This document shows, in pieces, positions 8,065 to 24,056 of a stretch of DNA of 38,720 bases. The DNA is from Armatimonadota bacterium. Its GTDB lineage: Bacteria > Armatimonadota > Fimbriimonadia > Fimbriimonadales > ATM1. The notes under the pieces were generated by a model. It was not told where the DNA came from. It ran no database searches and saw only the letters and a list, made by a program, of their open reading frames with translations. Positions within the stretch are counted from its first letter, which is position 1; each line of letters begins with the position of its first letter. Location: contig JAJPJR010000080.1 in the NCBI GenBank assembly GCA_021324165.1, forward strand, positions 1 through 38,720, written 5' to 3'. The position numbers and the translations under genes are program-made.

Positions 8065-9294
8065 ATGCCAAGCGGAGCCTCGACGCGCGAAGAAACGCGG
8101 GTCATCGAGGCGTACGCGGACGCGAAACCCACGATCGCCGCAGAGGTGTCACCGGAAACGCCGCTGGAGTCGCTCAACCTCAATTGGCGCGAGCGCGATC
8201 TGCCAGAAAAGCAGAGAACAAAGCACGTTCATCGCCTGCACCCATATCTCGGCAAGTTCATTCCGCAGCTCGTGGAAGTATTTCTCAGAAAATACTTTCA
8301 ACCTGGTCAAACGGTTGCCGACCCGTTCGCAGGGTCGGGAACAACGCTTGTCCAAGCGAACGAACTCGGCATTCATTCCATCGGCTATGACATCTCCGCG
8401 TTCAACGTTTTGCTGATGAGAGCAAAGACGGAGCGGTGCGACCCAGCAAAACTTGAATCAGAGGTTAGAGACGCGATCAACGCCGTGCGTCGAACTAACT
8501 GTACAGCTGCACGAATTCCAGAACTCGATGATGAAATGACGGATGATGAACCAGTGGACAGCGACTATCTGCGGCATTGGTATGCGCCCGAAGCGCTTCG
8601 CGAACTTTTGACATTTCGAAGCGCGATCATGCGCGCAAACCCCAGATACGAACTGATTTTGAAGGTAATACTGTGCCGCGCCGCAAGGTCGGCTCGACTT
8701 ACGACTCACTTCGACTTGGATTTTCCGAAGCAGCCGACCACAGAGCCTTATTACTGCTACAAACATTCCAGAACCTGCGAACCGACGCGCGATGCGATGA
8801 AATTCCTCGAACGGTATGCGGCCGACACTGTCGCAAGAGTGGCAGAGTTTCAAGCCCTCAGAACAGACGCTGACGTCACCATCATTCATGCCGACAGCGC
8901 AAAAGCGCGGGTTGCCAAAATAGACGGAATCATCACCAGCCCGCCCTATGTCGGACTGATTGATTACCACGAACAGCACGCTTATGCCTACCATCTGCTT
9001 GGCCTCAAAGATCGAAGATCGGAAGAGATAGGCGCCGCAGCCAACGGGCAGAGCGAGCGGGCTAAACGAAAATATCAAGAAGCGATAGCAAACGTCTTCG
9101 ATAGATTCGTCAAGAAAATGCCCAGTGGAGGACCGATCATCGTCGTTGCCGGCGATAAACACAATTTGTATCCGCGCATCGCTGAGCTGATCGGAGTCGA
9201 AACTGAAGCCGTTTTGCACAGGCATGTCAATCGAAGAACGGGCCGCCGGAACAACGCGTTCTTCGAATCAGTGTTCATTTGGCGCAAGCGATAA
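8065..9294 (+). CDS. Type II DNA methyltransferase (N4-cytosine/N6-adenine class), partner of TdeIII-like endonuclease
   Basis: The 409-residue enzyme transfers a methyl group from S-adenosylmethionine to a base in DNA. Motif X-like 'HPYLGKFIPQLV' (59-70) precedes motif I 'DPFAGSGT' (86-93), which binds the cofactor. The catalytic motif IV is 'TSPPY' (291-295), the serine form usual in N4-cytosine enzymes. Motif I comes first and about 200 residues separate it from motif IV, the order of an alpha-type amino methyltransferase with the target-recognition region between them. That spacer includes a cysteine/histidine cluster ('YYCYKHSRTCEP', 229-240). The enzyme should protect the host from the endonuclease encoded next, whose ATG overlaps this stop by one base. 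The likely site is GGNCC, inferred from the partner. Confidence 0.92.
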   Translation: MPSGASTREETRVIEAYADAKPTIAAEVSPETPLESLNLNWRERDLPEKQRTKHVHRLHPYLGKFIPQLVEVFLRKYFQPGQTVADPFAGSGTTLVQANELGIHSIGYDISAFNVLLMRAKTERCDPAKLESEVRDAINAVRRTNCTAARIPELDDEMTDDEPVDSDYLRHWYAPEALRELLTFRSAIMRANPRYELILKVILCRAARSARLTTHFDLDFPKQPTTEPYYCYKHSRTCEPTRDAMKFLERYAADTVARVAEFQALRTDADVTIIHADSAKARVAKIDGIITSPPYVGLIDYHEQHAYAYHLLGLKDRRSEEIGAAANGQSERAKRKYQEAIANVFDRFVKKMPSGGPIIVVAGDKHNLYPRIAELIGVETEAVLHRHVNRRTGRRNNAFFESVFIWRKR

Positions 9295-10166
9295 TGTCAA
9301 GTTCGAAAGAAGTGAAGAACGCCATTCAACAGGTGATTCGCAGAATGATGGACAGGGTCATGGACAACGTGCTCGTGAACGATCCGTTCGTGCCAGAAGC
9401 CCACCACGCAAAAAAGCCGCTGTACGCGGCCCTCGTGCCCGACGAGATCTTTAAAGGCTCTCACTTTGAAAGGCGGTTTACCACCCCGTTCGGCAAAGCG
9501 TGGGAAACTTTAGCCGTCGTTGCGGCGAAGGAGGGCCTTGGACGAGGCGAGATGGGATTCCGCATCAAAGGCAACGTTTCCGCTGAACGGCTGCGAAGAA
9601 TTGCCGAAGTCCTCAGCCGCTTAGAGCACGGAAAAGATGCCGATGGCCGAAAGATCAAGCCCGACTGGACGCACGAAGTTCAATACATTCAACAAGGAGG
9701 CGGTGAGCTCATTCCAACAGAAGTCGAATGCGATGTTTATGCAGAAACAAAAGACGGGAGCAGAAAAGTTGCATTCGAACTCAAAGCGCCGATGCCGAAC
9801 AGCGACCAAACCAAGGTCAGCAAGGAAAAACTGTTCAAACTTTATGCAATGCAGCCCATGCAGGTAACGCACGCATATTTCGCGCTTCCATACAACCCTT
9901 ACGGCCGATCACGTACGGATTACCAATGGTCGTTCCCGATGCGATGGTTCGACATGCACCGCGATCCGGTCGTACTCATCGGCGACGAGTTTTGGGACAC
10001 AATTGGCGGGCCGGGAACATATAATGCCTTCCTGGAGGCCGTGAACCAACTGGGCCGAGCATACAAAGATAGAATCTACAAGGAGTTCTTGGGAATCCAT
10101 CCGCCAAATCCAGAAACCGTTCCGCCGTTTCAGATTGAAGAAGGCAGCCGAAACTATGAAATCTAA
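9294..10166 (+). CDS. TdeIII/MjaII-like type II restriction endonuclease (predicted GGNCC)
   Basis: The 290-residue protein resembles the TdeIII family (RE_TdeIII), whose members cut at GGNCC. Recognisable stretches are 'NDPFVPEAHHAKKPLYAALVP' (29-49) and 'EIFKGSHFERRFTTPFGKAWE' (51-71). A PD-(D/E)xK-type catalytic arrangement is visible as D147 in 'ECDVYA' followed by E162-L163-K164 in 'VAFELKAP'. The start is ATG at 9294 (TAATG, one-base overlap with the methyltransferase stop) rather than an upstream TTG at 9279. This makes endonuclease translation depend on methyltransferase translation, a simple way to make the protecting enzyme first. No controller (C) protein gene is present. The family call is from memory and the specificity is by analogy. 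Confidence 0.85.
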   Translation: MSSSKEVKNAIQQVIRRMMDRVMDNVLVNDPFVPEAHHAKKPLYAALVPDEIFKGSHFERRFTTPFGKAWETLAVVAAKEGLGRGEMGFRIKGNVSAERLRRIAEVLSRLEHGKDADGRKIKPDWTHEVQYIQQGGGELIPTEVECDVYAETKDGSRKVAFELKAPMPNSDQTKVSKEKLFKLYAMQPMQVTHAYFALPYNPYGRSRTDYQWSFPMRWFDMHRDPVVLIGDEFWDTIGGPGTYNAFLEAVNQLGRAYKDRIYKEFLGIHPPNPETVPPFQIEEGSRNYEI

Positions 10167-10184
10167 ACTCCACCACACCCAACC

Positions 10185-11108
10185 ATGAACCTGCAGCAGA
10201 TCATCAAAACACTCGACGATTACTGGGCCGAACAAGGCTGCGCCATCCTGCAGCCCTACGACGTCGAAGTCGGCGCAGGAACCATGCACCCAGCCACCGT
10301 CCTCAAATGCCTCGGCCCCGAACCGTGGAACGTCGCCTACGTCCAGCCCAGCCGAAGACCCGCCGACGGCCGATACACACGCAATCCGATGCGCAACCAA
10401 CGGTACTACCAGTACCAAGTCATCATGAAGCCGAGCCCCAACAACATCGTAGACATTTACATCGGATCGCTAAACGCCATCGGTTTCAATGTCAACAAAA
10501 ACGACATCCGGCTCGTCGAAGACGATTGGGAATCGCCAAGCATGGGCGCGAGCGGCGTCGGCTGGGAAGTCTGGATGAACGCGGCCGAAATCACTCAGTT
10601 CACATTTTTCCAGCAGATGGGAGGCATCGAACTCAATCCGGTTTCAGCGGAAATCACCTACGGCCCCGAACGGCTCTGCCTTATGCTCAACGAAGGGTTC
10701 TCGTTTTGGGAAGACCTTCAATGGAATCAAAATCTCAGCTACAAAGATGTGAATTACGACCTCGAGCTTCAACACAACGTTTATAACTTCGAACTCGCCG
10801 ACGTCGGCACCTTGTTCAAACTTTTCGATATGTACGAGGCCGAAAGCAAGCGCGTAGTGGAATCCAAAGCCGGTTTCGATGAAGAGCTGGGACGGTACGC
10901 CCTGAACGAAAACGGCGACACTCACCTGGTCTACCCCGCATTCGATCTCGCCCTAAAATGCTCCCACGTGTTCAATCTGCTCGATGCACGCGGCGCCCTT
11001 TCGCCCACCGAAAGAGCGGCGTACATCAACCGCATTCGCGCGCGCGCCCGCGCGTGCTGTTTGAAGTATTTGGAGAACGCCAAAACCCAGCAAACCGCCA
11101 AAACCTAA
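10185..11108 (+). CDS. glyQ: Glycyl-tRNA synthetase alpha subunit
   Basis: This 307-residue class II synthetase subunit carries the aminoacylation core for glycine in the alpha2-beta2 bacterial enzyme. The sequence '[19 protein letters not shown]' at the start, '[20 protein letters not shown]' (45-64), '[12 protein letters not shown]' and '[22 protein letters not shown]' are family hallmarks, and the length is normal. In many GlyQ proteins a glycine-rich GENPNR-type stretch follows RRPxDGRY; here it reads TRNPMRN, a small divergence. The beta subunit (glyS) is not next to it, although it is in many genomes, so it must be elsewhere. The gene starts 18 bases after the endonuclease gene and may be read through from it. 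Confidence 0.97.
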
Positions 11109-11170
11109 ACCGATCTATCAGGTCCATTCGCCCCTAAAAACTGCCGAACATAAAACAGAAGGCGGCGAAT

Positions 11171-12091
11171 ATGAAAAAACTCTTCTCGATACTGGCAGCC
11201 GTGTCGGCGGTTTTTTCGGCCTGTGCGGGCCAAGCCGAGCCCATCCGCCTCATCTACGAAAACTACTTTTGGACAACCTACGCCGGCAAAGGATTGGATC
11301 AGCGCGCCGGATGGCTCGAACTCAAAGCCGATCTCAACGACAAGCTGAGCATTACCAACACCTATCTCATCTTTCCCTCGTTCTCGATGCTCGATGAAAC
11401 CTGCATCAACCTGAACCTCGGCGCAGCCGTGGTGCGCGTCGGCCGGCTCCGAAACGGCTTCGGTTTCAACGACTGGTCTGAACATTGGTACAACGCGTTT
11501 ATCAAACTGCCGCTCGTTCGCATGTCTCCGATGACTCCGTATTACACCGGAGTGTGGAGTTTCGATGCCGGCATTGATGCGCGGCTCTCTCTCGGCCCCG
11601 TCGAAATCAAAGCAGGTCTGCTCGATCCAAAAACCGACTCCTGGCAGATCGTCCCGAAGAACCCGAACTACGGAATGGCGCGCGTTCAATCGGAATTCGG
11701 GCCGCTCATCTTGGGCGCCAACGCAATGGGAAAACTCGGCCGCCCGCAAGATGAGGACTTCACGGCCTACGGTCTCGATTTCAAATGGACCGCACCGCGG
11801 ATCATGCTTCGAGGCGAACTGATTCGAAGCGTCAATCAAGGCGAATGGTCGGGCGGTTATTACCTCGACGCGTTTTATCGCCCCGTGGGCATGAACCGCA
11901 CCCAAGTCGGAATCAGAATTCAAGAAGCGGCGTTTCTGGGCAGCGCCGCCACCCGGCAGCAAACCATCGGAATCCGCCAGCTCATCACGCCGATGCTCGC
12001 GGCCAATCTCAACTACGGATTCGCGAGCGGGCCCGGCGCGTCCGGCTTGAAAGGCTGGTCGTTTCAAATCGTAACATCGCTTCATTTCTAA
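11171..12091 (+). CDS. Outer-membrane beta-barrel/porin-like protein
   Basis: The 306-residue protein begins with a signal peptide (residues 1-22, cut near AGQA|EP; C18 makes a poor lipobox because F occupies position -3). The mature chain shows repeated amphipathic strands ('AGWLELKADLNDKLSITNTYLIF', 'INLNLGAAVVRVGRLRNGFGF', 'YGLDFKWTAPRIMLRGELIRS', 'QVGIRIQEAAFLG') and ends 'FQIVTSLHF' with the terminal phenylalanine recognised by the barrel assembly machinery. This is a 12-16-strand-type barrel by length, with unknown cargo. Its neighbours nine bases downstream (cupredoxin) and beyond (HD-GYP protein) suggest one three-gene operon. AAGG at 11160-11163 is a weak ribosome site. Confidence 0.8.
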   Translation: MKKLFSILAAVSAVFSACAGQAEPIRLIYENYFWTTYAGKGLDQRAGWLELKADLNDKLSITNTYLIFPSFSMLDETCINLNLGAAVVRVGRLRNGFGFNDWSEHWYNAFIKLPLVRMSPMTPYYTGVWSFDAGIDARLSLGPVEIKAGLLDPKTDSWQIVPKNPNYGMARVQSEFGPLILGANAMGKLGRPQDEDFTAYGLDFKWTAPRIMLRGELIRSVNQGEWSGGYYLDAFYRPVGMNRTQVGIRIQEAAFLGSAATRQQTIGIRQLITPMLAANLNYGFASGPGASGLKGWSFQIVTSLHF

Positions 12092-12100
12092 GAAAACCGT

Positions 12101-12652
12101 ATGCTGATACCTGCAATCTCAATCGCAATTCTGAGCTCATCCCTGGTTGATGGCAACGTAACTTTATCAAAAGGAAAACCCGCGGCCAATGCCGTCGTGT
12201 ATCTCGAAGGCGATCAAAAATCCAAACCGCTGGCGCACGCCGTGGTTGATCAGCGCGACCGCAAGTTCATCCCTCACATTTCGGTGGTCACGGTTGGCAC
12301 CACAATCAGTTTTCCCAACAACGACACGGTGTTTCACAACGTCTTCGCCGAATTCGAAGCGAAAAGGTTCGACTTGGGAATGTATCCCCGAGGCACCTCA
12401 AAAACGGTTCGGTTTGACAGGCCGGGACTCGTGGCCATTTTGTGCAATGTGCACTCCGAAATGAGCGCCTATGTTATGGTTGTTGACACGCCCTATTACG
12501 CGATCGCCGATGCAAAAGGAAAGTTCAGCATCGCCGGAGTGCTTCCTGGCCGATACATCCTGCGCGTGTGGCACGAATCGGGCGAAATCGAATCGCGGGA
12601 AGTCTCAGTTTCATCGGTGCAGCATTTCGATGTTACGACTCATAAACGGTAA
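12101..12652 (+). CDS. Cupredoxin with carboxypeptidase-regulatory-like domain ('methylamine utilisation'-type)
   Basis: This 183-residue exported protein has a hydrophobic N-terminus (residues 3-16). It contains a plastocyanin-like domain with type 1 copper ligands H79 ('FHNVF'), C115 and H118 ('LCNVHSEM'), and M121 or M126 as the axial ligand. The C-terminal part, 'YYAIADAKGKFSIAGVLPGRYILRVWHESG', is the small beta domain common in carboxypeptidase-regulatory-like proteins. Such proteins carry or sense copper-linked redox state in the envelope; their electron partners are generally unknown. No methylamine pathway genes are present, so the database label would be misleading. The gene overlaps the next one by 23 bases, which implies tight coupling to the c-di-GMP enzyme. 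Confidence 0.88.
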   Translation: MLIPAISIAILSSSLVDGNVTLSKGKPAANAVVYLEGDQKSKPLAHAVVDQRDRKFIPHISVVTVGTTISFPNNDTVFHNVFAEFEAKRFDLGMYPRGTSKTVRFDRPGLVAILCNVHSEMSAYVMVVDTPYYAIADAKGKFSIAGVLPGRYILRVWHESGEIESREVSVSSVQHFDVTTHKR

Positions 12653-14780
12653 ACTCAATTCGTCGCTCAGACTTCGGATCAGCGCCACGTTCATCGGGTT
12701 GATTCTCGCCATCGGCGTTGTGGTGCTCACCTCCTTCACGTTTCTCACCACGCGTCAGGTGGAGCGAACCGTGCAGAAAGATGTCGAAGCCACAGCGTCG
12801 CTGATCCGCCACCTCATCGCCGAACGCGCCGCCGACCTTGAATCTCGAACGACGCTCATCGCCCAGCTTCCAACAATCCAAAGCGCCATTCTCAATGCAC
12901 GAGACAAAGACACGGTTGCCGATCGGGCAGAATACTATCTTCCCAAGCTGAACGCCGATGGACTCGTGATCGCCGACCGCGACGCGCAGATACTCGCTTC
13001 AGTGGGCTGCGCATCTCGATCGAGCGATCAGCAATCGTCCAAACCGTTTCTCGAAAAGGCGCTCGAAGGAACTCCCGTCAAAGGCGTCATCGAATTCGAT
13101 AACCGGATGATGCTGATCACTGCGGTGCCCATACGAGTCAGTGAATTCGTGCAGGGAGCGCTGTTGGCATACTCGGAAGTTGGAACCGATTTTGCAAGAA
13201 AACTCAGCGATACGCTTTCTACCGATGTGGCGTTCACGCTCGGCGGCACCACTGTTGCATCTTCCAAGCCCATTCCGCCCGGTCTCGATCTGCGTGCCCC
13301 CTCGCCGAAGCGGATCACGATCGCCGGCGTGGAATATGTGGCGCTCGAAGGCAGCCAGTCTGCTTCGCCCGCCTCGGCGCCCGTGAAGTTCGTTGTGCTC
13401 CATCGCCGATCCGCACTCATCGAAAATTTCGAACAGCTCAATCAAACGTTCGTTCTTATCATTTTGGGCAGCATTTTGGTTGCGGTCATTCTGTCCGGAC
13501 GCCTCTCTGCGAAGGTGACGCGGCCTCTTGAACAGATCGCCGCCGCTGCGACCAAACTGCGCTCCGGCGAATGGCCGGAAAAACTAGACGAGGCTTCGCA
13601 AAGTGAAATCGGCATTCTCAACATCACGTTCAACGAAATGACCGAGTCGCTGCGCGAAAGTCAACAAAAACTGCTCGCGATGATTGATCTCGATCCGCTC
13701 ACACAGCTCGACAATCATCGCAGGTTCAAAGAGAATATCGCCCAAGAAACCGCACGCGGACTCGCATCCGGCAACCCCGTCTCTCTGCTCCTGCTCGATC
13801 TCGACGGATTCAGCAAAATCAATGAACAGAAAGGACACGCCGCCGGCGACGAACTGCTCAAATCAGTTGCAGAACTGATGAAAACCGAAGCACCCGATTA
13901 TGCGCTGCTTGCGCGGCACAGCGGCGACGGGTTCGCGATGATCCTTCCGCTCACACCCCTTGAAAAAGCGTGCGATTTCGCCGAAACGCTCCAGTTTTCT
14001 ATTTATAACCGGCTCGCTCTGTCTTGCTGCATCGGCTGCGCCGAAGCAGGGCCCAGCACGTTGACAGGCGAATCGCTCTGCCTGGCTGCAGAAGTGGCAC
14101 TCACGCGAGCAAAAATGATCGGCACAAACCAGATTGCCAGGTTCGACCGCATTCCCGGAGCAGAAAATTCCGATCCTTATCAGCTTTCCCAATATCTTCA
14201 AGATGCGAGCATCGCAACCATTCAAGCGCTTGCCGCCGCCGTTGACGCAAAAGACGCTTACACCCGCGGACATTCGCAGCGCGTGGCAGAATTCGCTTCT
14301 TGGCTGTGCGAGTATCTTGGCGGAAACAAAGAAGAAGTTGAACTCACCTATCGCACCGGCACGCTGCACGACGTGGGCAAGATCGGCGTGCCCGATCACA
14401 TTCTCAACAAACAGTCGAACCTAACCGACGAAGAGCGTGCGATCGTTGAAACACATCCTGTGCTGGGCGAAGTCATCGTGAAAAAAGTGCCGCAGCTTGC
14501 CGACGCGCTTTCCGGAGTGCGCAGCCACCACGAAAGATGGGATGGAAATGGGTATCCCGACGGCTTGGCAGGAACCGCCATATCGCGCCTTGCGCGCATG
14601 ATCGCCATCGCCGATACCTATGACGCGATGACCAGCGACCGCCCCTATCGCAAAGGTCTCGATATGGATACCGCGCTTCAAGAGATCGTGAAAGGCGCAG
14701 GCACACAGTTCGATCCGTACCTCGCCACGTCGTTTGCAAAAATGATGTGGGAGCGCGGGGAATCTGAACGCGTGGCGTAG
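12630..14780 (+). CDS. Membrane sensor with HAMP, degenerate GGDEF and HD-GYP domains (c-di-GMP phosphodiesterase)
   Basis: The 716-residue protein has a first membrane helix (about 17-39), a periplasmic Cache-like sensor (about 40-270), a second helix (about 274-292), a HAMP linker (about 293-345), a GGDEF-type domain (351 to about 510) and an HD-GYP domain (about 530-716). The GGDEF signature is S431-G-D-G-F435, so cyclase activity is unlikely. The HD-GYP core is complete: 'HDVGKIGVPD' at 580-589 and 'HHERWDGNGYP' at 633-643, so it should hydrolyse c-di-GMP. The ATG at 12630 lies inside the cupredoxin gene; an upstream in-frame ATG at 12471 is rejected because it would prepend a basic, cysteine-containing stretch. 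With the neighbours it may form an envelope sensing unit. Confidence 0.9.
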   Translation: MLRLINGKLNSSLRLRISATFIGLILAIGVVVLTSFTFLTTRQVERTVQKDVEATASLIRHLIAERAADLESRTTLIAQLPTIQSAILNARDKDTVADRAEYYLPKLNADGLVIADRDAQILASVGCASRSSDQQSSKPFLEKALEGTPVKGVIEFDNRMMLITAVPIRVSEFVQGALLAYSEVGTDFARKLSDTLSTDVAFTLGGTTVASSKPIPPGLDLRAPSPKRITIAGVEYVALEGSQSASPASAPVKFVVLHRRSALIENFEQLNQTFVLIILGSILVAVILSGRLSAKVTRPLEQIAAAATKLRSGEWPEKLDEASQSEIGILNITFNEMTESLRESQQKLLAMIDLDPLTQLDNHRRFKENIAQETARGLASGNPVSLLLLDLDGFSKINEQKGHAAGDELLKSVAELMKTEAPDYALLARHSGDGFAMILPLTPLEKACDFAETLQFSIYNRLALSCCIGCAEAGPSTLTGESLCLAAEVALTRAKMIGTNQIARFDRIPGAENSDPYQLSQYLQDASIATIQALAAAVDAKDAYTRGHSQRVAEFASWLCEYLGGNKEEVELTYRTGTLHDVGKIGVPDHILNKQSNLTDEERAIVETHPVLGEVIVKKVPQLADALSGVRSHHERWDGNGYPDGLAGTAISRLARMIAIADTYDAMTSDRPYRKGLDMDTALQEIVKGAGTQFDPYLATSFAKMMWERGESERVA

Positions 14781-14813
14781 CCCTCTCAAGTGCGCGCCCA
14801 TTTTCGCTTCTTT

Positions 14814-16187
14814 TCACTTCACCTCCGGAACTCGAACGGTCACACGCGTTCCCTTTCCTGGCTCGCTTTCGATTCTCAGCTCGCCGTGATGCGCCTTCAC
14901 AATCTCATCCACGATCGCAAGCCCCAGCCCTGCGCCGCCGGCGTCGCGCGTTCGTGCATCCTCAACCCGATAAAACCGTTCCACCAGATGCGGCAGATGC
15001 CGCGCCTCGATCCCAATCCCTTCATCCTGCACTTGCAGCACTCCAAAACCGTTTTCACGAAAAACCCGCACCGATATGCGCGCTCCTTTCGCATACTTTC
15101 GCGCATTCTCCAAAAGATTCGTGCAAACCCTTTCCATCTGCGCCTCGTCACCCAGCACCGTTACGGCGTCCGATGCGAATGCGGTTTCGCACGTTTCGCC
15201 GCCCATCGTTTTTGAAACCGCTTCCGCGGCAGCCACGCGCAGATCAAACGTTTCAAATCGCATCTCCATTCGGCCCGCGTCCGCGCTTGCCAACGTCAAC
15301 AGCTGGCTCACCAGCGCCGCCATCTCTTTTCCGGCATCTTCCGCCGTTTTGAGCGCACGGCGCATCTCCTCTTCTGAACCCGTTTGCGCGGCACTCGCCG
15401 CAAGTTGCAGCCGTGTCAGAGGCGTGCGCAGTTCGTGCGAGGCGTCGGCAGTGAACCGCCGCTGCTGCTCCAAAGATTGTCTCAGGCCCGACACCGCTTC
15501 CTCCACACGCCCTGCCATCGCGTTAAACTGCTCTCCAAGTTTCGCGAATTCGTCCGAACCGTGAGTTTGAATGCGTGCGCCGAAATCTCCATCCGCGATC
15601 GCTTTCGCAGCATTTTGCATCGCACCGATCGGATGCATCACGCGACCCGTTACTGCAAAGCCCAACAAAACCGAACCGATCAGCGCGAACGGAAGCACAA
15701 TCATCAGCGTTCGAAACTGCACTTCGCGCACATCCGCAATCCCGCGGGTTTCATGCGCAACCTGAACCACGCCGGCAAGCATCCTCCCGCGGACAATCGG
15801 CGCAGTGTAAACCCGCACAGGTTCGCCCCGATACTCGCAATCCGAAAACGACGGGCTTCCGTTCGCTGCCAAACGCACCGCCGCCTCGTCGAACAGATCG
15901 CCCGGCATCGGCATCGTTCCAAAAAGCGCATCCGCCATGATCATCCGTGGACGACGAATCGAAGCGATCAAATCGGGCTCATCCTCGGGGGCTCGCATCG
16001 GCCCGCCCGGCGGCGGGGGCGGCGGCCCCGGCCGAGCCATTCCGTTCGCTCGCTCCACCAGCTCGTGATCTAAACCCGATTGAAGCTGGCGCGTGTTAAT
16101 CGTAATGATCGCAATCCCAAGCACAAGCATCGCCGCAACGACCGAGCCGCAAACCACCAAAAGCATCTGAGTGCGAAACGAGTTCAA
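14814..16187 (-). CDS. Sensor histidine kinase (CpxA-like position and architecture)
   Basis: The 457-residue kinase has helix 1 (about 8-30), a periplasmic loop with a proline run (P54 to P60) and acidic stretch, helix 2 (about 160-180), HAMP (about 181-235), the phospho-acceptor H251 in 'DASHELRTPLTRL', N361 in 'NLLENARKYA', 'DEGIG' (388-392) and 'GAGLGLA' (418-424). All boxes of an active kinase are intact. Its start overlaps the regulator's stop by four bases. Together with the upstream LTxxQ protein it matches the order of CpxP-CpxR-CpxA, where the periplasmic protein restrains the kinase and envelope stress releases it. That function is inferred from order and domains. It converges with the HD-GYP gene across a 33-base gap. 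Confidence 0.93.
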   Translation of the reverse strand: MNSFRTQMLLVVCGSVVAAMLVLGIAIITINTRQLQSGLDHELVERANGMARPGPPPPPPGGPMRAPEDEPDLIASIRRPRMIMADALFGTMPMPGDLFDEAAVRLAANGSPSFSDCEYRGEPVRVYTAPIVRGRMLAGVVQVAHETRGIADVREVQFRTLMIVLPFALIGSVLLGFAVTGRVMHPIGAMQNAAKAIADGDFGARIQTHGSDEFAKLGEQFNAMAGRVEEAVSGLRQSLEQQRRFTADASHELRTPLTRLQLAASAAQTGSEEEMRRALKTAEDAGKEMAALVSQLLTLASADAGRMEMRFETFDLRVAAAEAVSKTMGGETCETAFASDAVTVLGDEAQMERVCTNLLENARKYAKGARISVRVFRENGFGVLQVQDEGIGIEARHLPHLVERFYRVEDARTRDAGGAGLGLAIVDEIVKAHHGELRIESEPGKGTRVTVRVPEVK

Positions 16188-16858
16188 CCGGGCTGCACCT
16201 TCAACACATAGCCGATTCCATAAACCGTGTGAATCAGTTTCGGTTCGAACTCCGCGTCAATTTTTTTTCGCAGCGATGCGATATGAAAATTCACGCTGTT
16301 CGGAAGATTGTCTTCGTTTGCCCAAACGCGCTCCACGATCGCCTCGCGCGTCAAAGTTCTGCCTTCGTTGCGCGCAAGCGCCTCCAAAAGGCTGAACTCC
16401 CGATTTGTCAGCGCAATCTCCACACCGCCGCGCGTAACGGTGTGCGCTTTGGTGTCTATCTCCAAATCCGCAACAACGATGCGGCCCGTCCGATGAATTT
16501 TATCCCGACGCATCAGCGCCTGAATCCGAGCCGTTAGCTCGCGCACATCGAACGGCTTCGGAAGATAATCATCAGCGCCGCCCTCCAAACCTTTGATGCG
16601 GTCTTCCACCGAATCACGCGCCGTCAGCATCAAAATCGGAGTCGTAAGATGCGCGCGGCGCAGGTTCTCGCAAACCGTCCATCCGTCGCGCTCAGGAAGC
16701 ATAATGTCCAAGATAATAAGATCGTAATGAGATGAAAGAGCGGCCTGCTCGCCGCGCGGGCCGCTCCTTTTCGTCTCGACTTGGAACCGCTCTTTCTGCA
16801 AATACCGTGCGATCTGATCCGAAATAACGATGTCGTCTTCGATCAACAGAATCTTCAC
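16184..16858 (-). CDS. OmpR-family response regulator
   Basis: The 224-residue regulator has a receiver domain with acidic pair D8-D9, phospho-acceptor D51 ('LIILDIMLP'), T79 and K101 ('LPKPF'), then a winged-helix DNA-binding domain (about 127-222) with 'LTNREFSLLEALARNEGRTLTREAIVERVW' and 'VNFHIASLRKKID' and the terminal hairpin 'IHTVYGIGYVLK'. It is a complete transcription factor that should be phosphorylated by the kinase encoded directly downstream with a four-base overlap. Fifteen bases separate it from the LTxxQ gene, so all three are one operon. The regulator probably controls that operon, as CpxR does, but I see no clear operator in the 56 bases before the first gene. Confidence 0.95.
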   Translation of the reverse strand: MKILLIEDDIVISDQIARYLQKERFQVETKRSGPRGEQAALSSHYDLIILDIMLPERDGWTVCENLRRAHLTTPILMLTARDSVEDRIKGLEGGADDYLPKPFDVRELTARIQALMRRDKIHRTGRIVVADLEIDTKAHTVTRGGVEIALTNREFSLLEALARNEGRTLTREAIVERVWANEDNLPNSVNFHIASLRKKIDAEFEPKLIHTVYGIGYVLKVQPG

Positions 16859-16873
16859 GGCCGCTGCGCGAAA

Positions 16874-17572
16874 TCAACCACCGGGCGGCGGGGGTCCTGG
16901 ATGCCGATTGAAGTTGAACGGCTTGCCGGTCATCTGCGCCCATTTCGATTTCTGTTCAGAGCTGAACAGCGCCAACACCGCGGCGTTCACTTTCTCGCGT
17001 CGTGCCTCCATCTGTTTGAACATCGTCTCAGGGTCGGGCCGCTCGCCGTTCGGATCAGGAGGAGCCGGCCGATTCTGCTCCATAATCTCGCGGATCTTCT
17101 GCCGCTGATCTTCGGTGATTCCGAGTTCCTTTCCAACGTCGGGACGCATCGCCGCGATCGGACCCTGAAACTGAAGGTCGAGCTGCTTATACCGCGCGAA
17201 CTGCGATTCCGTCAGAATCTCTTTCAGTTTTGCATTCAGTTCGCCCTGCGGGTTTCCTCGAGGGGGTCCCTGCGGGTCGCCGCCGCCTTGGGGTGGCGGT
17301 CCGCCAGGCCCGCCGGGCCCGCCTGGGCCGCCTGGGCCGCCTGGGCCGCCGAACCTCGGCCTCGGCATGAGCTCACGAATCTTCTGCTTCTGCTCCTCGG
17401 TCAAGTTCAGCTCTTTCTGAACTTCGGGCATGCCAAGAATCATCGCTCCGCCGCCCATCATCCGCATTTCGCCGCGTGGAGGGCCCTGAGGCGGCGCACC
17501 GCCCGGCCCCGGCCCTTGCGAAAACGCCTGGGCTGTCAACCCCAGAACTGCCAGCGCTATCAATCTTTTCAT
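16874..17572 (-). CDS. LTxxQ-motif (CpxP/Spy-like) periplasmic protein with Gly-Gly-Pro tract
   Basis: The 232-residue protein has a signal peptide (about 1-18). It contains four helix-start motifs of the Spy/CpxP type: LTEEQ (57-61), LTESQ (120-124), ITEDQ (152-156) and SSEQ (204-207), each leading into a basic amphipathic helix ('QKQKIRELM', 'QRQKIREIM'). CpxP and Spy are periplasmic chaperones and stress gauges of two motifs; this is a doubled version. A Gly-Gly-Pro tract repeated six times (75-92) and other G/P-rich stretches separate the helices. The ATG at 17572 is chosen because AAGGAG sits just upstream and the signal peptide follows; an ATG 15 codons earlier would spoil it. It heads the operon with regulator and kinase. 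Confidence 0.88.
   Translation of the reverse strand: MKRLIALAVLGLTAQAFSQGPGPGGAPPQGPPRGEMRMMGGGAMILGMPEVQKELNLTEEQKQKIRELMPRPRFGGPGGPGGPGGPGGPGGPPPQGGGDPQGPPRGNPQGELNAKLKEILTESQFARYKQLDLQFQGPIAAMRPDVGKELGITEDQRQKIREIMEQNRPAPPDPNGERPDPETMFKQMEARREKVNAAVLALFSSEQKSKWAQMTGKPFNFNRHPGPPPPGG
17297..17350. repeat. Nine-base tandem repeat coding Gly-Gly-Pro
   Basis: Six tandem units (three of GGCGGCCCA and three near copies, read on the minus strand) encode the (GGP)6 tract of the LTxxQ protein. The units are a multiple of three, so gain or loss of units changes length without frameshift. Confidence 0.7.
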
Positions 17573-17628
17573 CTGTTTCTCCTTGCGCGGTCGCGCACAT
17601 GCATTAAACGGCTTCACCTGTTTGAATC

Positions 17629-19359
17629 TTATTTAGATTTGGGGCCGTTTTGCGCCGCCAGGTCATAAAACCGCCACGCAGCATCAAAATCCTTCGAAAG
17701 TTTCCCATCGCCGAACAGTGCCCGAATCATCGCCACGGGCATGTTCCCCGATTGCAAAATCCGGTCGTGAAACTGCTTGTCCGTCATCTTCTTCGAGTCC
17801 ACAAACTCGTGATGCAAAGACCGAAACTGAAGCGCGCCCAACATATACGCGCACTGATAAAGCGGCGGGTAGGCACCGCTCAGCGAACGCCGCACCTCGG
17901 CCTCGGCGCTGCTCCGCTCATGCCCCACCTTGTCCACCAAAAGTTCGATGCACTGGTCGGGGGTCATCGTCTCAAGATGAAATCCCAGCGAAAAAATGAT
18001 CCGCGCGCACCGATGCATCCGCCAAAACAGCATCCCCACGCGGTTCTGCGGCGACTTCGGAAATCCCAAATCCCACATCAACATCTCCCAATACAGCGCC
18101 CAACCCTCCGTCCAAAACGGCGTGCTGAAAATCCGCCGGTATTGCGCATAACGCGCGTTCATAAACTGCTGCAAGTTATGACCCGGAATCAGTTCGTGAA
18201 ACACCGTCGCCCGCGAAAAATGCACGTTGTTCGCGCGCATGCTCATCATCTTTTGATCCTGCGACATCGCATCGGTTGGATACGAAACCATGATCGTATC
18301 GCCGCCCAAAAAGAAAGGATTGACAAGCTGCATCTGCGGCGACATCATCTCCATCCGCCACGTCTCCTTGGCCAATTCAGGAATCGTTACCAAATCGCGA
18401 TCTTCCACAAACTTAATCGCCTCTTCGGCAAGCCTGCGCACCAATTCGGTCTGCTGGCCCGCATCCACATGGTCTTCCTTCACAATCTCCAAAGCCCTTT
18501 TCCAATCGTCGCCGCAGCCCATCTCGCGCGAGGCTTTGATCATTTCGCTCTGACACCATGCAAACTCTTTGTTTGCGATCTGAACCAACTCCTCGGGCGT
18601 ATAAGGAATCATCTCGAACTTCAGTTCTTCTAAGAGCGCTTCGCGCCCGATCGGATCGCCCACAATAAAGTTGTCATTGCCCGGAGGAATCTTCGCAACC
18701 GTCTCGCGCAAAAACCTCGCATAGCCCGCCAGCGCCTCGTCCGCCGACTTAAACGGCGCCGAAACCCACCAGCCGAACGTCGGCACATAGCCGTCATAAA
18801 ACTTAAACCACGTCTCCAGCGCACTTCGCAAGCGCGAAACCGCCATGCTCGCACGGTTGGCTGTCGTCCTTTTGAAAGTCTCGGTTCGCATCCGCGTCTC
18901 GATGTTCGACTTTGTTTCGTCCACGCTCTTTTTCAGTTCGTTCACAATCTGCGCGGCCTTTTCAGCATCGAGCGCCTTGCCGAGAATCCGGTTATCCTCC
19001 AGGTTCGTAATCGTTTCCGCAAACGGCACGAACTGCCTGATCTCATCGAACTGCTTATCGGCGATCTCCATCTGCCGCATCCGGTGCCTCAAATAACTGT
19101 CGAACAGCAGATAGTCCACTTGACCATCGCGGTTCAACGCGCCAAAGTTCTGCCGCGAAAGCAGCGAGCGCTCATCTTGAAAAAACTTCCGCAGCCGATC
19201 TTCGCCCATCTTCGAAAACGGCGTCTCATATTTGCGCTCGATGCTCTCGACATCGGCCGCGAACTGCTCGATCATCGGCTTCAAACTGCTCTCGGTCATC
19301 GCTGGAATCATCGTCATCGCTATCGTCGCAAAAACCATAAGCGGAAGACTACCGCGCAA
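17629..19359 (-). CDS. DUF885-family zinc metallopeptidase-like protein
   Basis: The 576-residue protein carries the zinc motif 'VFHELIPGH' (HExxPGH, an HExxxH-type site) and about 30 residues later 'FWTEGWALYWE', which supplies the third acidic ligand; together these are the core of the DUF885 family. Members are helical, thermolysin-fold-related peptidases, often with a leader; the N-terminus here (MRGSLPLMVFATIAMTMIPAMTES) looks like a signal peptide, so it is probably exported. The substrate is unknown. Its start lies 11 bases inside the threonine synthase gene, so the two are co-transcribed in the minus direction. Although the neighbour makes threonine, no biochemical link is evident. 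Confidence 0.9.
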   Translation of the reverse strand: MRGSLPLMVFATIAMTMIPAMTESSLKPMIEQFAADVESIERKYETPFSKMGEDRLRKFFQDERSLLSRQNFGALNRDGQVDYLLFDSYLRHRMRQMEIADKQFDEIRQFVPFAETITNLEDNRILGKALDAEKAAQIVNELKKSVDETKSNIETRMRTETFKRTTANRASMAVSRLRSALETWFKFYDGYVPTFGWWVSAPFKSADEALAGYARFLRETVAKIPPGNDNFIVGDPIGREALLEELKFEMIPYTPEELVQIANKEFAWCQSEMIKASREMGCGDDWKRALEIVKEDHVDAGQQTELVRRLAEEAIKFVEDRDLVTIPELAKETWRMEMMSPQMQLVNPFFLGGDTIMVSYPTDAMSQDQKMMSMRANNVHFSRATVFHELIPGHNLQQFMNARYAQYRRIFSTPFWTEGWALYWEMLMWDLGFPKSPQNRVGMLFWRMHRCARIIFSLGFHLETMTPDQCIELLVDKVGHERSSAEAEVRRSLSGAYPPLYQCAYMLGALQFRSLHHEFVDSKKMTDKQFHDRILQSGNMPVAMIRALFGDGKLSKDFDAAWRFYDLAAQNGPKSK

Positions 19360-22180: not shown

Positions 22181-22531
22181 ATGAACCCGAGCCCGCTTGA
22201 CTTGCGATATCTGAAAGAGCTGACAGGCTCCGATGAACGGTTTCTCGCCGAACTGATCGAGGAGTTCCTGGTCAGCGCAAACGATCTTCTTGATCGAATG
22301 ACCGCGCTTCTTGCGGCAGAAGATTGGGGTGAACTGAAACTTGCCGCTCATGCGTTGAAAGGCAGCAGCCGAAGCATCGGCAGCAGCATTTTGGGAGAGA
22401 TCGCTTTCCAAATAGAGAACGAATCGAAACGGGCAGACAAGCCCGGACTCAAGTCGCTTCTGAGTCAAGCCGCGGCTGAATACGCGCGCATCAAAACGTG
22501 GTGGGAAGGCGCCGCACAAAGTGCAGCATGA
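22181..22531 (+). CDS. Free-standing HPt (histidine phosphotransfer) protein
   Basis: The 116-residue all-alpha protein has the phospho-histidine H57 in 'LAAHALKGSSRSIGS', the exact HPt signature. Such proteins shuttle a phosphate between receiver domains in a phosphorelay. There is no hybrid kinase in the same operon, but the downstream REC-PAS-GGDEF protein is an obvious acceptor, so the pair may link a distant kinase to c-di-GMP. A GGAGGA (22168-22173) sets the ATG. The gene is separated by 82 bases from the next start, in the same direction, so co-transcription is likely. Confidence 0.92.
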   Translation: MNPSPLDLRYLKELTGSDERFLAELIEEFLVSANDLLDRMTALLAAEDWGELKLAAHALKGSSRSIGSSILGEIAFQIENESKRADKPGLKSLLSQAAAEYARIKTWWEGAAQSAA

Positions 22532-22613
22532 TGTTGCCCGGCAGGCAGCATTACCGCATGACACGTTCCATCAGGACGCCGCTCAAACAACAAACCATAC
22601 ACCAGGACGTGAT

Positions 22614-24056
22614 ATGAGAGTACTAATCGCAGAAGACGACGTCGTTACGAACAAACTTCTCAACCGGCTTCTCACGAAGTTCGGATACGATTGCCAATGC
22701 GTTTTCAACGGCCTTGAAGCCTGGAACGCGATTCAAAACGAGCACTTTCCCGTGGTCGTTTCCGACTGGATGATGCCCGGCATCGAAGGCGTGGAACTCT
22801 GCCGACGATTGCGCGAACTCAAAGACCGCCCGTACAGTTATGTCATCCTTCTCACAAGCCGAGATGAGCGCGACGACCGGTTTCAAGCACTTCGAAGCGG
22901 CGTAGATGACGTGCTCGCCAAACCGATTGACTTGGAAGAACTGGAATGCCGAATGGCCGTCGGAACGCGCATCATCAAGATGGAGCACCACCTGAAAGAG
23001 CAAAACCTCCAGCTTGAAGAAAGTCGAGCGCAGCTCGAACATTCCAACGCAGTGCTCTTGACAAAGCAGCAGGAAGTCGAAAGGCTGCTCGCTCAGGCCG
23101 AGCGGACTTCCGAATATGCGCAGGAGGCAAACCGAAGGTTCGAGCAGCTGTTCGGCGAAATCCCCGTCGCAGGATTTTCGTGCGATGAATCCACCAAGAT
23201 CTTCGAATGGAACAAAAAGGCCGAAGAGATTTTTGGAGTGCCGGCAGACCGCGCCGTCGAAAAGCCGATGCGCTCCGTCATCGGAAAAAAACTGCTCACA
23301 CGAAAGGCGCTCGATGCAATTCACGCCGTGTTTCAAGGCGTGCCGTTCGTAGATCAAGAGTGGAAAGCGGGCGACAGAGTGCTGCTCGTTTCAGGCTATC
23401 CCATGGTCGGTTACAACAACAAAATCAGCGGATGCCTGGCCACCGCCGTTGACATCTCCCAGCTTCGAAAAATCGAAGCAGAACTTCGAACCAAAATGAA
23501 GGAACTTCGAGCCGCAAACTCCAAAATCGAGGAAGCCAATCGCAAGCTTTCCGAAATGGCCGTTACCGACGGGCTTACAAAAATCGCGAACCGCCGCGCG
23601 CTCATGGACCGCCTCGCAATCTGCCTCGAACAAGCCGAGCGTGGTCAGCGGTTTACGCTTGCGATGATTGATGTTGACCATTTCAAAAAGTTCAACGACG
23701 AATTCGGACACCAAGCCGGGGACGAAATCCTCATCGCTGTCGCGCAGACCCTCAAGTCCAGCGTCCGCAAATTGGACTTTGTCGCGCGCTACGGTGGTGA
23801 AGAGTTCTGCGTTCTGTTTGTCAATGCGTCGTTGAGATCGGCAGTCAAAATGGCAGAGCGCATTCGCAAACGGATCTCCGAAATCCAAAACCCGTATCGC
23901 GCAATCACCGCAAGTTTCGGACTCGCGGAGCATCCCGGCCTGCCCATCGAAGGCGACCAGCTGGTAAGAGCCGCCGACGACGCTCTCTACGATGCCAAAG
24001 CCGCCGGAAGAAATCGAGTCGCCGTGCGCAGCATCGAATTCGAAGAAGCCGCCTGA
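22614..24056 (+). CDS. Response-regulator diguanylate cyclase (REC-PAS-GGDEF)
   Basis: The 480-residue protein has a receiver domain (1-120; acidic D8/D9, phospho-acceptor D51, T81, K103), a coiled coil (about 125-175), a PAS domain (about 178-295), a second coiled coil and a GGDEF domain (about 320-475). The catalytic signature is GGEEF (394-398) and the inhibitory site RKLD (385-388) has the RxxD pattern at the right spacing, so it is an active, product-inhibited cyclase that makes c-di-GMP. The ATG at 22614 is chosen because the receiver begins there and AGGA (22603-22606) precedes it; an earlier in-frame start would overlap the HPt gene with unrelated residues. Confidence 0.95.
   Translation: MRVLIAEDDVVTNKLLNRLLTKFGYDCQCVFNGLEAWNAIQNEHFPVVVSDWMMPGIEGVELCRRLRELKDRPYSYVILLTSRDERDDRFQALRSGVDDVLAKPIDLEELECRMAVGTRIIKMEHHLKEQNLQLEESRAQLEHSNAVLLTKQQEVERLLAQAERTSEYAQEANRRFEQLFGEIPVAGFSCDESTKIFEWNKKAEEIFGVPADRAVEKPMRSVIGKKLLTRKALDAIHAVFQGVPFVDQEWKAGDRVLLVSGYPMVGYNNKISGCLATAVDISQLRKIEAELRTKMKELRAANSKIEEANRKLSEMAVTDGLTKIANRRALMDRLAICLEQAERGQRFTLAMIDVDHFKKFNDEFGHQAGDEILIAVAQTLKSSVRKLDFVARYGGEEFCVLFVNASLRSAVKMAERIRKRISEIQNPYRAITASFGLAEHPGLPIEGDQLVRAADDALYDAKAAGRNRVAVRSIEFEEAA

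What the first reader, a model, noticed from the sequence alone, without database searches (positions are those of the whole stretch)
11171..14780. Candidate undescribed envelope system: beta-barrel + cupredoxin + membrane HD-GYP
Three same-strand genes are packed with 9 bases and then a 23-base overlap: an outer-membrane barrel, an exported copper-site protein (H79, C115, H118, M121/M126), and a two-helix sensor with a Cache-like periplasmic domain, degenerate GGDEF and intact HD-GYP. A type 1 copper protein coupled to a c-di-GMP phosphodiesterase suggests that copper or redox state in the envelope sets c-di-GMP level. From memory, cupredoxin genes labelled 'methylamine utilisation' recur beside GGDEF/EAL membrane proteins in other phyla, so this may be a widespread unnamed module.
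Basis: partly seen in the sequence, partly recalled or inferred. Interest (0 to 1): 0.72.

Follow-up and report, generated by a model that had tools for sequence, protein, structure and literature searches.

The report
Copper-protein-linked envelope sensor with swappable outputs
Next to a membrane receptor that breaks down the bacterial signal c-di-GMP lie genes for a small secreted copper protein and an outer-membrane pore, and this trio recurs in many unrelated bacteria with different signalling outputs, which suggests an undescribed way of reading copper or redox state in the cell envelope.

Summary
A 16-stranded porin-like barrel, an exported type 1 copper protein and a two-helix dCache_3-HAMP-GGDEF-HD-GYP receptor are packed at 11171-14780.

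The neighbourhood is conserved far beyond close relatives. In 113 genomes of the class, copper-protein and barrel genes occur in exactly the same 21 genomes, together with the receptor. Of 57 loci from other phyla chosen by copper-protein sequence alone, 48 carry a receptor with the homologous periplasmic domain; 4 more are cut by contig ends. Searching Acidobacteriota by that periplasmic domain instead, 25 of 29 loci hold the copper protein.

Copper ligands are invariant in 124 of 125 sequences. The receptor output is exchanged: HD-GYP, GGDEF-EAL, histidine kinase or SpoIIE phosphatase. Related copper proteins outside this group (24 sequences) have no such receptor.

Best reading: the copper protein is a dedicated periplasmic partner of the receptor, and its redox state or copper load is the signal; c-di-GMP is only one output. 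Copper-efflux genes lie near 3 of 103 loci, while multihaem cytochromes or a truncated haemoglobin occupy some operons, so redox is at least as likely as copper level. I found no published description. Signal and direction of control are untested.

The parts
11171..12091 (+). outer-membrane barrel gene, 306 aa: signal peptide, 16-stranded porin-like barrel, C-terminal Phe
   Evidence: ORF; AlphaFold2 on alignment A5, pLDDT 87.8, pTM 0.82, 16 strands; Foldseek OmpU 6ehb E 9.5e-14; invariant C-terminal F306
12101..12652 (+). exported type 1 copper protein, 183 aa: cupredoxin domain plus C-terminal CarboxypepD_reg domain
   Evidence: Pfam; solved copper domains matched; orthologue alignment A1
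12335..12337 (+). codon of copper ligand H79
   Evidence: invariant in A1; 124 of 125 homologues
12443..12463 (+). C115-x2-H118-x2-M121 copper-binding loop (amicyanin-like spacing)
   Evidence: invariant in all 125 homologues
12467..12628 (+). CarboxypepD_reg beta-sandwich domain of the copper protein (residues 123-176)
   Evidence: Pfam PF13620 E 2.9e-8
12630..14780 (+). two-helix membrane receptor, 716 aa; start overlaps the copper-protein gene by 23 bases
   Evidence: ORF and Pfam
12771..13268 (+). periplasmic dCache_3 / CHASE4-like sensory domain (residues 48-213)
   Evidence: Pfam PF14827 E 6.6e-9; homologous to the sensory domains of kinase-type receptors beside the same copper protein, hhalign 99.9%, E 1.2e-35
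13503..13658 (+). HAMP linker (residues 292-343)
   Evidence: Pfam PF00672 E 7.9e-10
13689..14132 (+). GGDEF domain with degenerate A-site SGDGF
   Evidence: Pfam E 3e-27; motif comparison
14229..14720 (+). HD-GYP phosphodiesterase domain with intact motifs
   Evidence: Pfam HD_5 E 3.2e-39; HDVGK and HHERWDGNGYP

Best explanation
The three genes form one envelope signalling unit. Shown by sequence: a porin-like outer-membrane barrel, an exported copper protein with a complete type 1 (Cys/His2/Met) site, and a two-helix receptor with a dCache_3 periplasmic domain, encoded together and inherited together; across phyla the copper protein and the receptor's periplasmic domain stay constant while the cytoplasmic output is exchanged. 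Inferred: the copper protein is the receptor's periplasmic partner. It picks up copper, or electrons from envelope redox chemistry (porin-admitted solutes, cytochromes), and its copper load or Cu(I)/Cu(II) state decides whether or how it docks on the dCache_3 domain. The helices and HAMP pass this on, and in this organism it changes HD-GYP hydrolysis of c-di-GMP (the genome holds five PilZ-domain genes as possible receivers). I put redox state slightly ahead of copper concentration as the signal.
For: Copper protein and barrel occur in the identical 21 of 113 class genomes, always with the receptor beside them. Copper-protein-first test outside the phylum: 48 of 57 loci have the receptor domain, 4 are cut by contig ends, 5 lack it. 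Receptor-first test in Acidobacteriota: 25 of 29 loci hold the copper protein within about 4 kb. In the sensor-linked group of the copper-protein tree 95 of 96 assessable rows have the receptor (some of these rows were found through the receptor), against 0 of 24 outside it. Periplasmic domains homologous over 220 columns with four output types. Within one 8-row clade supported 100/99, where the loci readable past the copper protein are ordered copper protein-barrel-receptor, HD-GYP replaces histidine kinase. Copper ligands invariant. Redox genes in the operon: multihaem cytochromes in four Myxococcota loci, truncated haemoglobin in plasmids of Pseudomonadota. PilZ genes.
Against: No direct evidence of a copper protein-receptor contact; no complex could be predicted and no fused protein was seen. 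The receptor occurs without the copper protein in four class genomes and in 3 Acidobacteriota loci. Type 1 sites usually bind copper very tightly (general knowledge), which speaks against a copper-concentration sensor, and copper-efflux genes are near only 3 of 103 loci. Barrels in different phyla are not all detectably homologous.
Confidence: 0.6

Rival explanations
1. The copper protein and barrel are targets, not inputs. The receptor senses some other ligand through its dCache_3 pocket and controls expression or use of an envelope copper or electron-transfer pair encoded beside it.
For: Receptor paralogues exist without the copper protein. Kinase versions come with NtrC- or OmpR-type regulators that could control the neighbouring genes. 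Cytochromes and haemoglobin in some operons look like redox machinery.
Against: HD-GYP, GGDEF-EAL and SpoIIE outputs are not transcription factors, yet keep the same two partners. The copper protein tracks the periplasmic domain rather than any output, as expected for an input partner.
Confidence: 0.25
2. A narrower form of the best explanation: the module is a copper-level sensor. The porin admits copper, the copper-loaded protein engages the receptor, and the output is a copper-stress or copper-acquisition response.
For: Copper ligands invariant. A CusA/CzcA-type pump or CusB-like adaptor is adjacent in L246 and L256, and within about 6.5 kb in L126. A related periplasmic domain type (CHASE4 of PA14_37690) binds Cu(II) directly and belongs to a c-di-GMP protein (PMC13277305).
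Against: Copper-efflux genes near only 3 of 103 loci. Type 1 sites are electron-transfer sites with tight copper binding (general knowledge).
Confidence: 0.27
3. An operon kept together by history or horizontal transfer without functional coupling of its products.
For: Patchy distribution in the class (21 of 113 genomes) suggests transfer or loss as a unit.
Against: Linkage survives across many phyla, changes of gene order (upstream, downstream, divergent) and exchange of the output domain. Copper-protein subfamilies outside the group never carry the receptor (0 of 24).
Confidence: 0.05

Closest known systems
YfiBNR of Pseudomonas (outer-membrane YfiB, periplasmic YfiR, inner-membrane diguanylate cyclase YfiN; from memory)
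   Same: Three-layer envelope layout: outer-membrane protein, soluble periplasmic regulator, inner-membrane c-di-GMP enzyme with HAMP
   Different: YfiR is not a copper protein, YfiB is an OmpA/Pal-type lipoprotein and the output is synthesis; here a type 1 copper protein, a porin-like barrel and HD-GYP hydrolysis, with other outputs elsewhere
NspS-MbaA and binding-protein-dependent kinases such as AgtS/AruS with their solute-binding proteins (NspS-MbaA from memory; AgtS/AruS PMC11113362, abstract only)
   Same: A soluble periplasmic protein encoded beside the receptor is thought to deliver the signal to its periplasmic domain
   Different: The partner there is a solute-binding protein; here it is a copper electron-transfer fold
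CHASE4 c-di-GMP proteins PA2072 (IsmP) and PA14_37690 (PMC13277305)
   Same: Periplasmic CHASE4-type domain of a membrane c-di-GMP protein linked to metal or haem; PA14_37690 binds Cu(II)
   Different: The metal binds the receptor domain itself; no copper protein or barrel partner is described; PAS-GGDEF-EAL output
Cus/Cop copper-sensing two-component systems (CusS, PMC10100754, abstract only; otherwise from memory)
   Same: Periplasmic copper as possible input to a membrane sensor
   Different: CusS is reported to sense periplasmic copper ions and belongs with efflux genes; such genes are rare around this module
Proteobacterial 'methylamine utilization protein' + DUF3034 + truncated haemoglobin + EAL gene clusters (annotation only; no paper found)
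   Same: Same copper-protein family and dCache_3-HAMP receptor; DUF3034 ends in Phe like a barrel
   Different: GGDEF-EAL output, truncated haemoglobin added, barrel not detectably homologous

Membership tests
Type 1 copper protein (cupredoxin, amicyanin-like loop) | Cys, two His and Met ligands in a cupredoxin sequence context | tested here: met
   H79, C115, H118, M121 invariant; CxxHxxM loop; matches to solved type 1 copper domains
Type 1 copper protein (cupredoxin, amicyanin-like loop) | Binds copper, with the blue absorption near 600 nm | not testable with these tools
   bench spectroscopy needed
Methylamine utilisation (mau) system | Gene lies with methylamine dehydrogenase genes | tested here: not met
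   No mau genes in the annotated plasmid neighbourhoods of proteins called 'methylamine utilization protein'; neighbours are receptor and, in two of three, DUF3034 and haemoglobin
dCache_3/CHASE4 transmembrane receptor | Two helices enclosing a Cache-type periplasmic domain followed by HAMP | tested here: met
   Pfam dCache_3 E 6.6e-9, HAMP E 7.9e-10
HD-GYP c-di-GMP phosphodiesterase | HD...HHExxDGxGYP catalytic motifs | tested here: met
   motifs intact; GGDEF A-site degenerate
HD-GYP c-di-GMP phosphodiesterase | Hydrolyses c-di-GMP | not testable with these tools
   enzyme assay needed
Porin-type outer-membrane barrel | Signal peptide, 16-strand barrel, C-terminal aromatic residue | tested here: met
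   general-porin fold, about 10-16% identity to solved porins
YfiBNR-type system | YfiR-like (DUF4154) periplasmic protein and Pal-like YfiB | tested here: not met
   Periplasmic partner is a cupredoxin and outer-membrane partner a barrel
Copper-efflux-linked copper sensor (Cus/Cop) | Encoded with copper efflux or oxidase genes | tested here: not met
   CusA/CusB-like genes near 3 of 103 loci; none among the window neighbours annotated

The most novel reading that the evidence does not exclude
A so far unnamed class of envelope sensory system in which a blue copper protein is the dedicated periplasmic co-receptor of dCache_3 receptors, reading envelope redox or copper state, supplied through an outer-membrane pore, with freely exchanged outputs (c-di-GMP hydrolysis or turnover, phosphorelay, SpoIIE phosphatase) in several phyla.
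Probability: 0.45. Interest if true: 0.82.

Novelty: new variant of a known kind. Interest (0 to 1): 0.7.

Why it matters
How bacteria read copper and redox conditions in the periplasm is known for few sensors, and many dCache receptors have no known signal. A receptor family tied to one copper protein, with outputs swapped around it, names a concrete candidate signal carrier for a whole set of orphan receptors. It also helps explain the misleading label 'methylamine utilization protein', and it is testable in cultured soil bacteria.

Tried and rejected
Single-sequence fold of the receptor's periplasmic half: pLDDT 41, unusable. Loci of another collection could not serve as search centre until they had genome handles. 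Sequence search of solved structures with the periplasmic-domain profiles gave no credible relative. M126 as copper ligand rejected: not conserved. Copper-efflux context as general support rejected: 3 of 103 loci. A single homologous barrel family rejected: DUF3034, a 521-residue Acidobacteriota barrel and an Ignavibacteria barrel do not match the window's barrel profile, one Acidobacteriota barrel only weakly, although Acidobacteriota barrels placed between copper protein and receptor do match (about 1e-30). Riboswitch or other Rfam element: none in 10000-18000. Separate internal promoters: no plus-strand sigma-70-like site upstream of or between the three genes, but the scan does no better than shuffled sequence. 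Searches failed on wrong coordinates and were repeated. The two-component/LTXXQ genes downstream were considered as part of the module and left out: no such pair appears in the flanks listed.
Full report
WHAT IS THERE. The window is contig C69 of a 2.33 Mb, 97% complete genome. Contig lengths and record titles of its relatives place it in Fimbriimonadia, Armatimonadota (inference). Three plus-strand genes lie at 11171-12091, 12101-12652 and 12630-14780, separated by 9 bases and then overlapping by 23. The third gene's 769-residue ORF in the list starts earlier, but the ATG at 12630 gives the 716-residue protein aligned with its relatives. The gene before (10185-11108) is glycyl-tRNA synthetase alpha; the genes after run on the other strand.

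BARREL. No Pfam or NCBIfam family matches. An AlphaFold2 model from 23 relatives has a signal helix and 16 strands (pLDDT 87.8, pTM 0.82). Its nearest solved folds are OmpU, OprP and Omp32 porins (Foldseek E about 1e-13 to 1e-11, 10-16% identity). The last residue is an invariant Phe. It is a porin-like barrel; what passes through it is unknown.

COPPER PROTEIN. A cupredoxin domain is followed by a CarboxypepD_reg domain. H79, C115, H118 and M121 are invariant in 21 orthologues and kept in 124 of 125 homologues, the exception being one remote protein. The CxxHxxM spacing resembles amicyanin (general knowledge), which may explain the label 'methylamine utilization protein' on homologues.

RECEPTOR. 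Pfam gives dCache_3 (E 7e-9), CHASE4 (below cut-off), HAMP, GGDEF and HD. The GGDEF A-site reads SGDGF. In the class-level set the A-site is intact in some relatives and decayed in others, while the HD-GYP motifs are intact in nearly every readable sequence (two Acidobacteriota copies read HQE for HHE). The conserved activity is therefore probably c-di-GMP hydrolysis, not synthesis.

CONSERVATION IN THE CLASS. Of 113 genomes, 21 have an orthologous copper protein. Exactly the same 21 have the barrel at E below 1e-60 (one further genome has a weak, 1e-11 match), and all have the receptor's periplasmic domain. All 20 loci other than the window keep the three genes together; in two the barrel is divergent. 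Four further genomes carry only the receptor, alone. The profiles were built from these loci, so the coincidence is descriptive, but no strong barrel hit appeared elsewhere. Remote cupredoxin paralogues in the same genomes have no receptor beside them.

BEYOND THE PHYLUM, BOTH DIRECTIONS. A scan of one genome per species by copper-protein sequence alone gave 57 loci outside Armatimonadota. In 48 a receptor whose periplasmic region matches the Armatimonadota profile lies next to it, 4 are cut by the contig end, and 5 lack it. With transmembrane parts trimmed off, the periplasmic profile still matches, and profile-profile comparison is 99.9% over 220 columns. In the reverse direction, 149 Acidobacteriota genomes were searched with the periplasmic domain alone; of 29 loci examined, 25 hold the copper protein within about 4 kb, 15 within the 1.5 kb flank and 10 further off, mostly with the barrel between. 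One of the other four is at a contig end. Each of 20 genomes checked holds only 1-3 such receptor domains, so adjacency by chance would be rare.

OUTPUT EXCHANGE. Of 45 receptors outside the phylum, 37 match HisKA, 5 HD-GYP, and single or few others match SpoIIE or PilZ. Kinase versions are often followed by an NtrC-type regulator or preceded by an OmpR-like one (the latter by reading the sequence). Two Myxococcota receptors end in SpoIIE. Plasmids of Pseudomonadota carry dCache_3-HAMP-GGDEF-EAL. On the copper-protein tree the HD-GYP label needs at least 5 gains or losses that well-supported branches force. In one 8-row clade (support 100/99), where the loci readable past the copper protein are ordered copper protein-barrel-receptor, an Armatimonadota locus (L086) has HD-GYP where its relatives have kinases. 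Sensor-linked copper proteins form a large group in which 95 of 96 assessable rows have the receptor, against 0 of 24 outside. About a dozen of these 96 rows were found through the receptor and are not independent; the tree's deepest forks are weakly supported.

THE BARREL SLOT. Proteins in that slot often end in an aromatic residue and begin with a signal-like stretch. They are not one family: some match the window's barrel at about 1e-30, others only weakly or not at all. The constant pair is copper protein plus periplasmic domain.

SIGNAL. Copper is indicated by the invariant ligands and by CusA/CusB-like genes near three loci, but only 3 of 103. Redox is indicated by a multihaem cytochrome c between copper protein and receptor in Myxococcota, a truncated haemoglobin with DUF3034 in some Pseudomonadota, and the fact that type 1 sites normally carry electrons (general knowledge). 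I rank redox slightly above copper level, with low certainty. That the copper protein acts on the receptor is inference; the chief rival is that it is the receptor's target.

LITERATURE. Searches for the copper-protein label with EAL, GGDEF or histidine kinase, for DUF3034, and for cupredoxin with c-di-GMP found no description. The closest is the Cu(II)-binding CHASE4 domain of the c-di-GMP protein PA14_37690 (PMC13277305). Only open-licence papers were searchable.

VERDICT. The neighbourhood claim is confirmed and extended; the copper/redox-to-c-di-GMP mechanism is plausible and untested. I call it a new variant of the known kind 'receptor with periplasmic partner protein', with a copper protein as the unusual partner.

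Noticed in passing
window 14814-17617 (-): Histidine kinase, OmpR-type regulator and an LTXXQ (CpxP/ZraP-like) periplasmic protein lie directly downstream on the other strand; a possible metal or envelope-stress system, not seen as a set in the flanks of the relatives listed.
   Followed up: partly
window 8065-10166 (+): A DNA methyltransferase and a TdeIII-family restriction endonuclease form an apparent type II restriction-modification pair.
   Followed up: partly
window 22521-24056 (+): A response regulator with PAS and GGDEF domains: a second c-di-GMP gene within 8 kb of the module, a possible counterpart of the phosphodiesterase.
   Followed up: no
L121 8513-9745, L137 8273-9934, L152 2141-3331, L154 8512-9870: In four Myxococcota loci a multihaem (five CxxCH) cytochrome c gene sits between copper protein and receptor; in L121 and L137 the receptor output is a SpoIIE phosphatase.
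   Followed up: partly
L174, L176, L178 (plasmids): DUF3034 and a group 1 truncated haemoglobin gene lie beside copper protein and receptor in Caballeronia and Novosphingobium plasmids; in L178 the receptor appears truncated.
   Followed up: partly
L179-L182: Four class genomes carry a receptor with the same periplasmic domain and HD-GYP output but no copper protein or barrel.
   Followed up: partly
L132, L133: Two copper-protein genes flank an unidentified 486-residue protein near kinase/NtrC genes that lack the dCache domain profile: perhaps a different arrangement of the same idea.
   Followed up: no
L055-L059: A sister cupredoxin subfamily with FNVSQ in place of FDLGMY, ligands kept, no receptor beside it; function unknown.
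   Followed up: no
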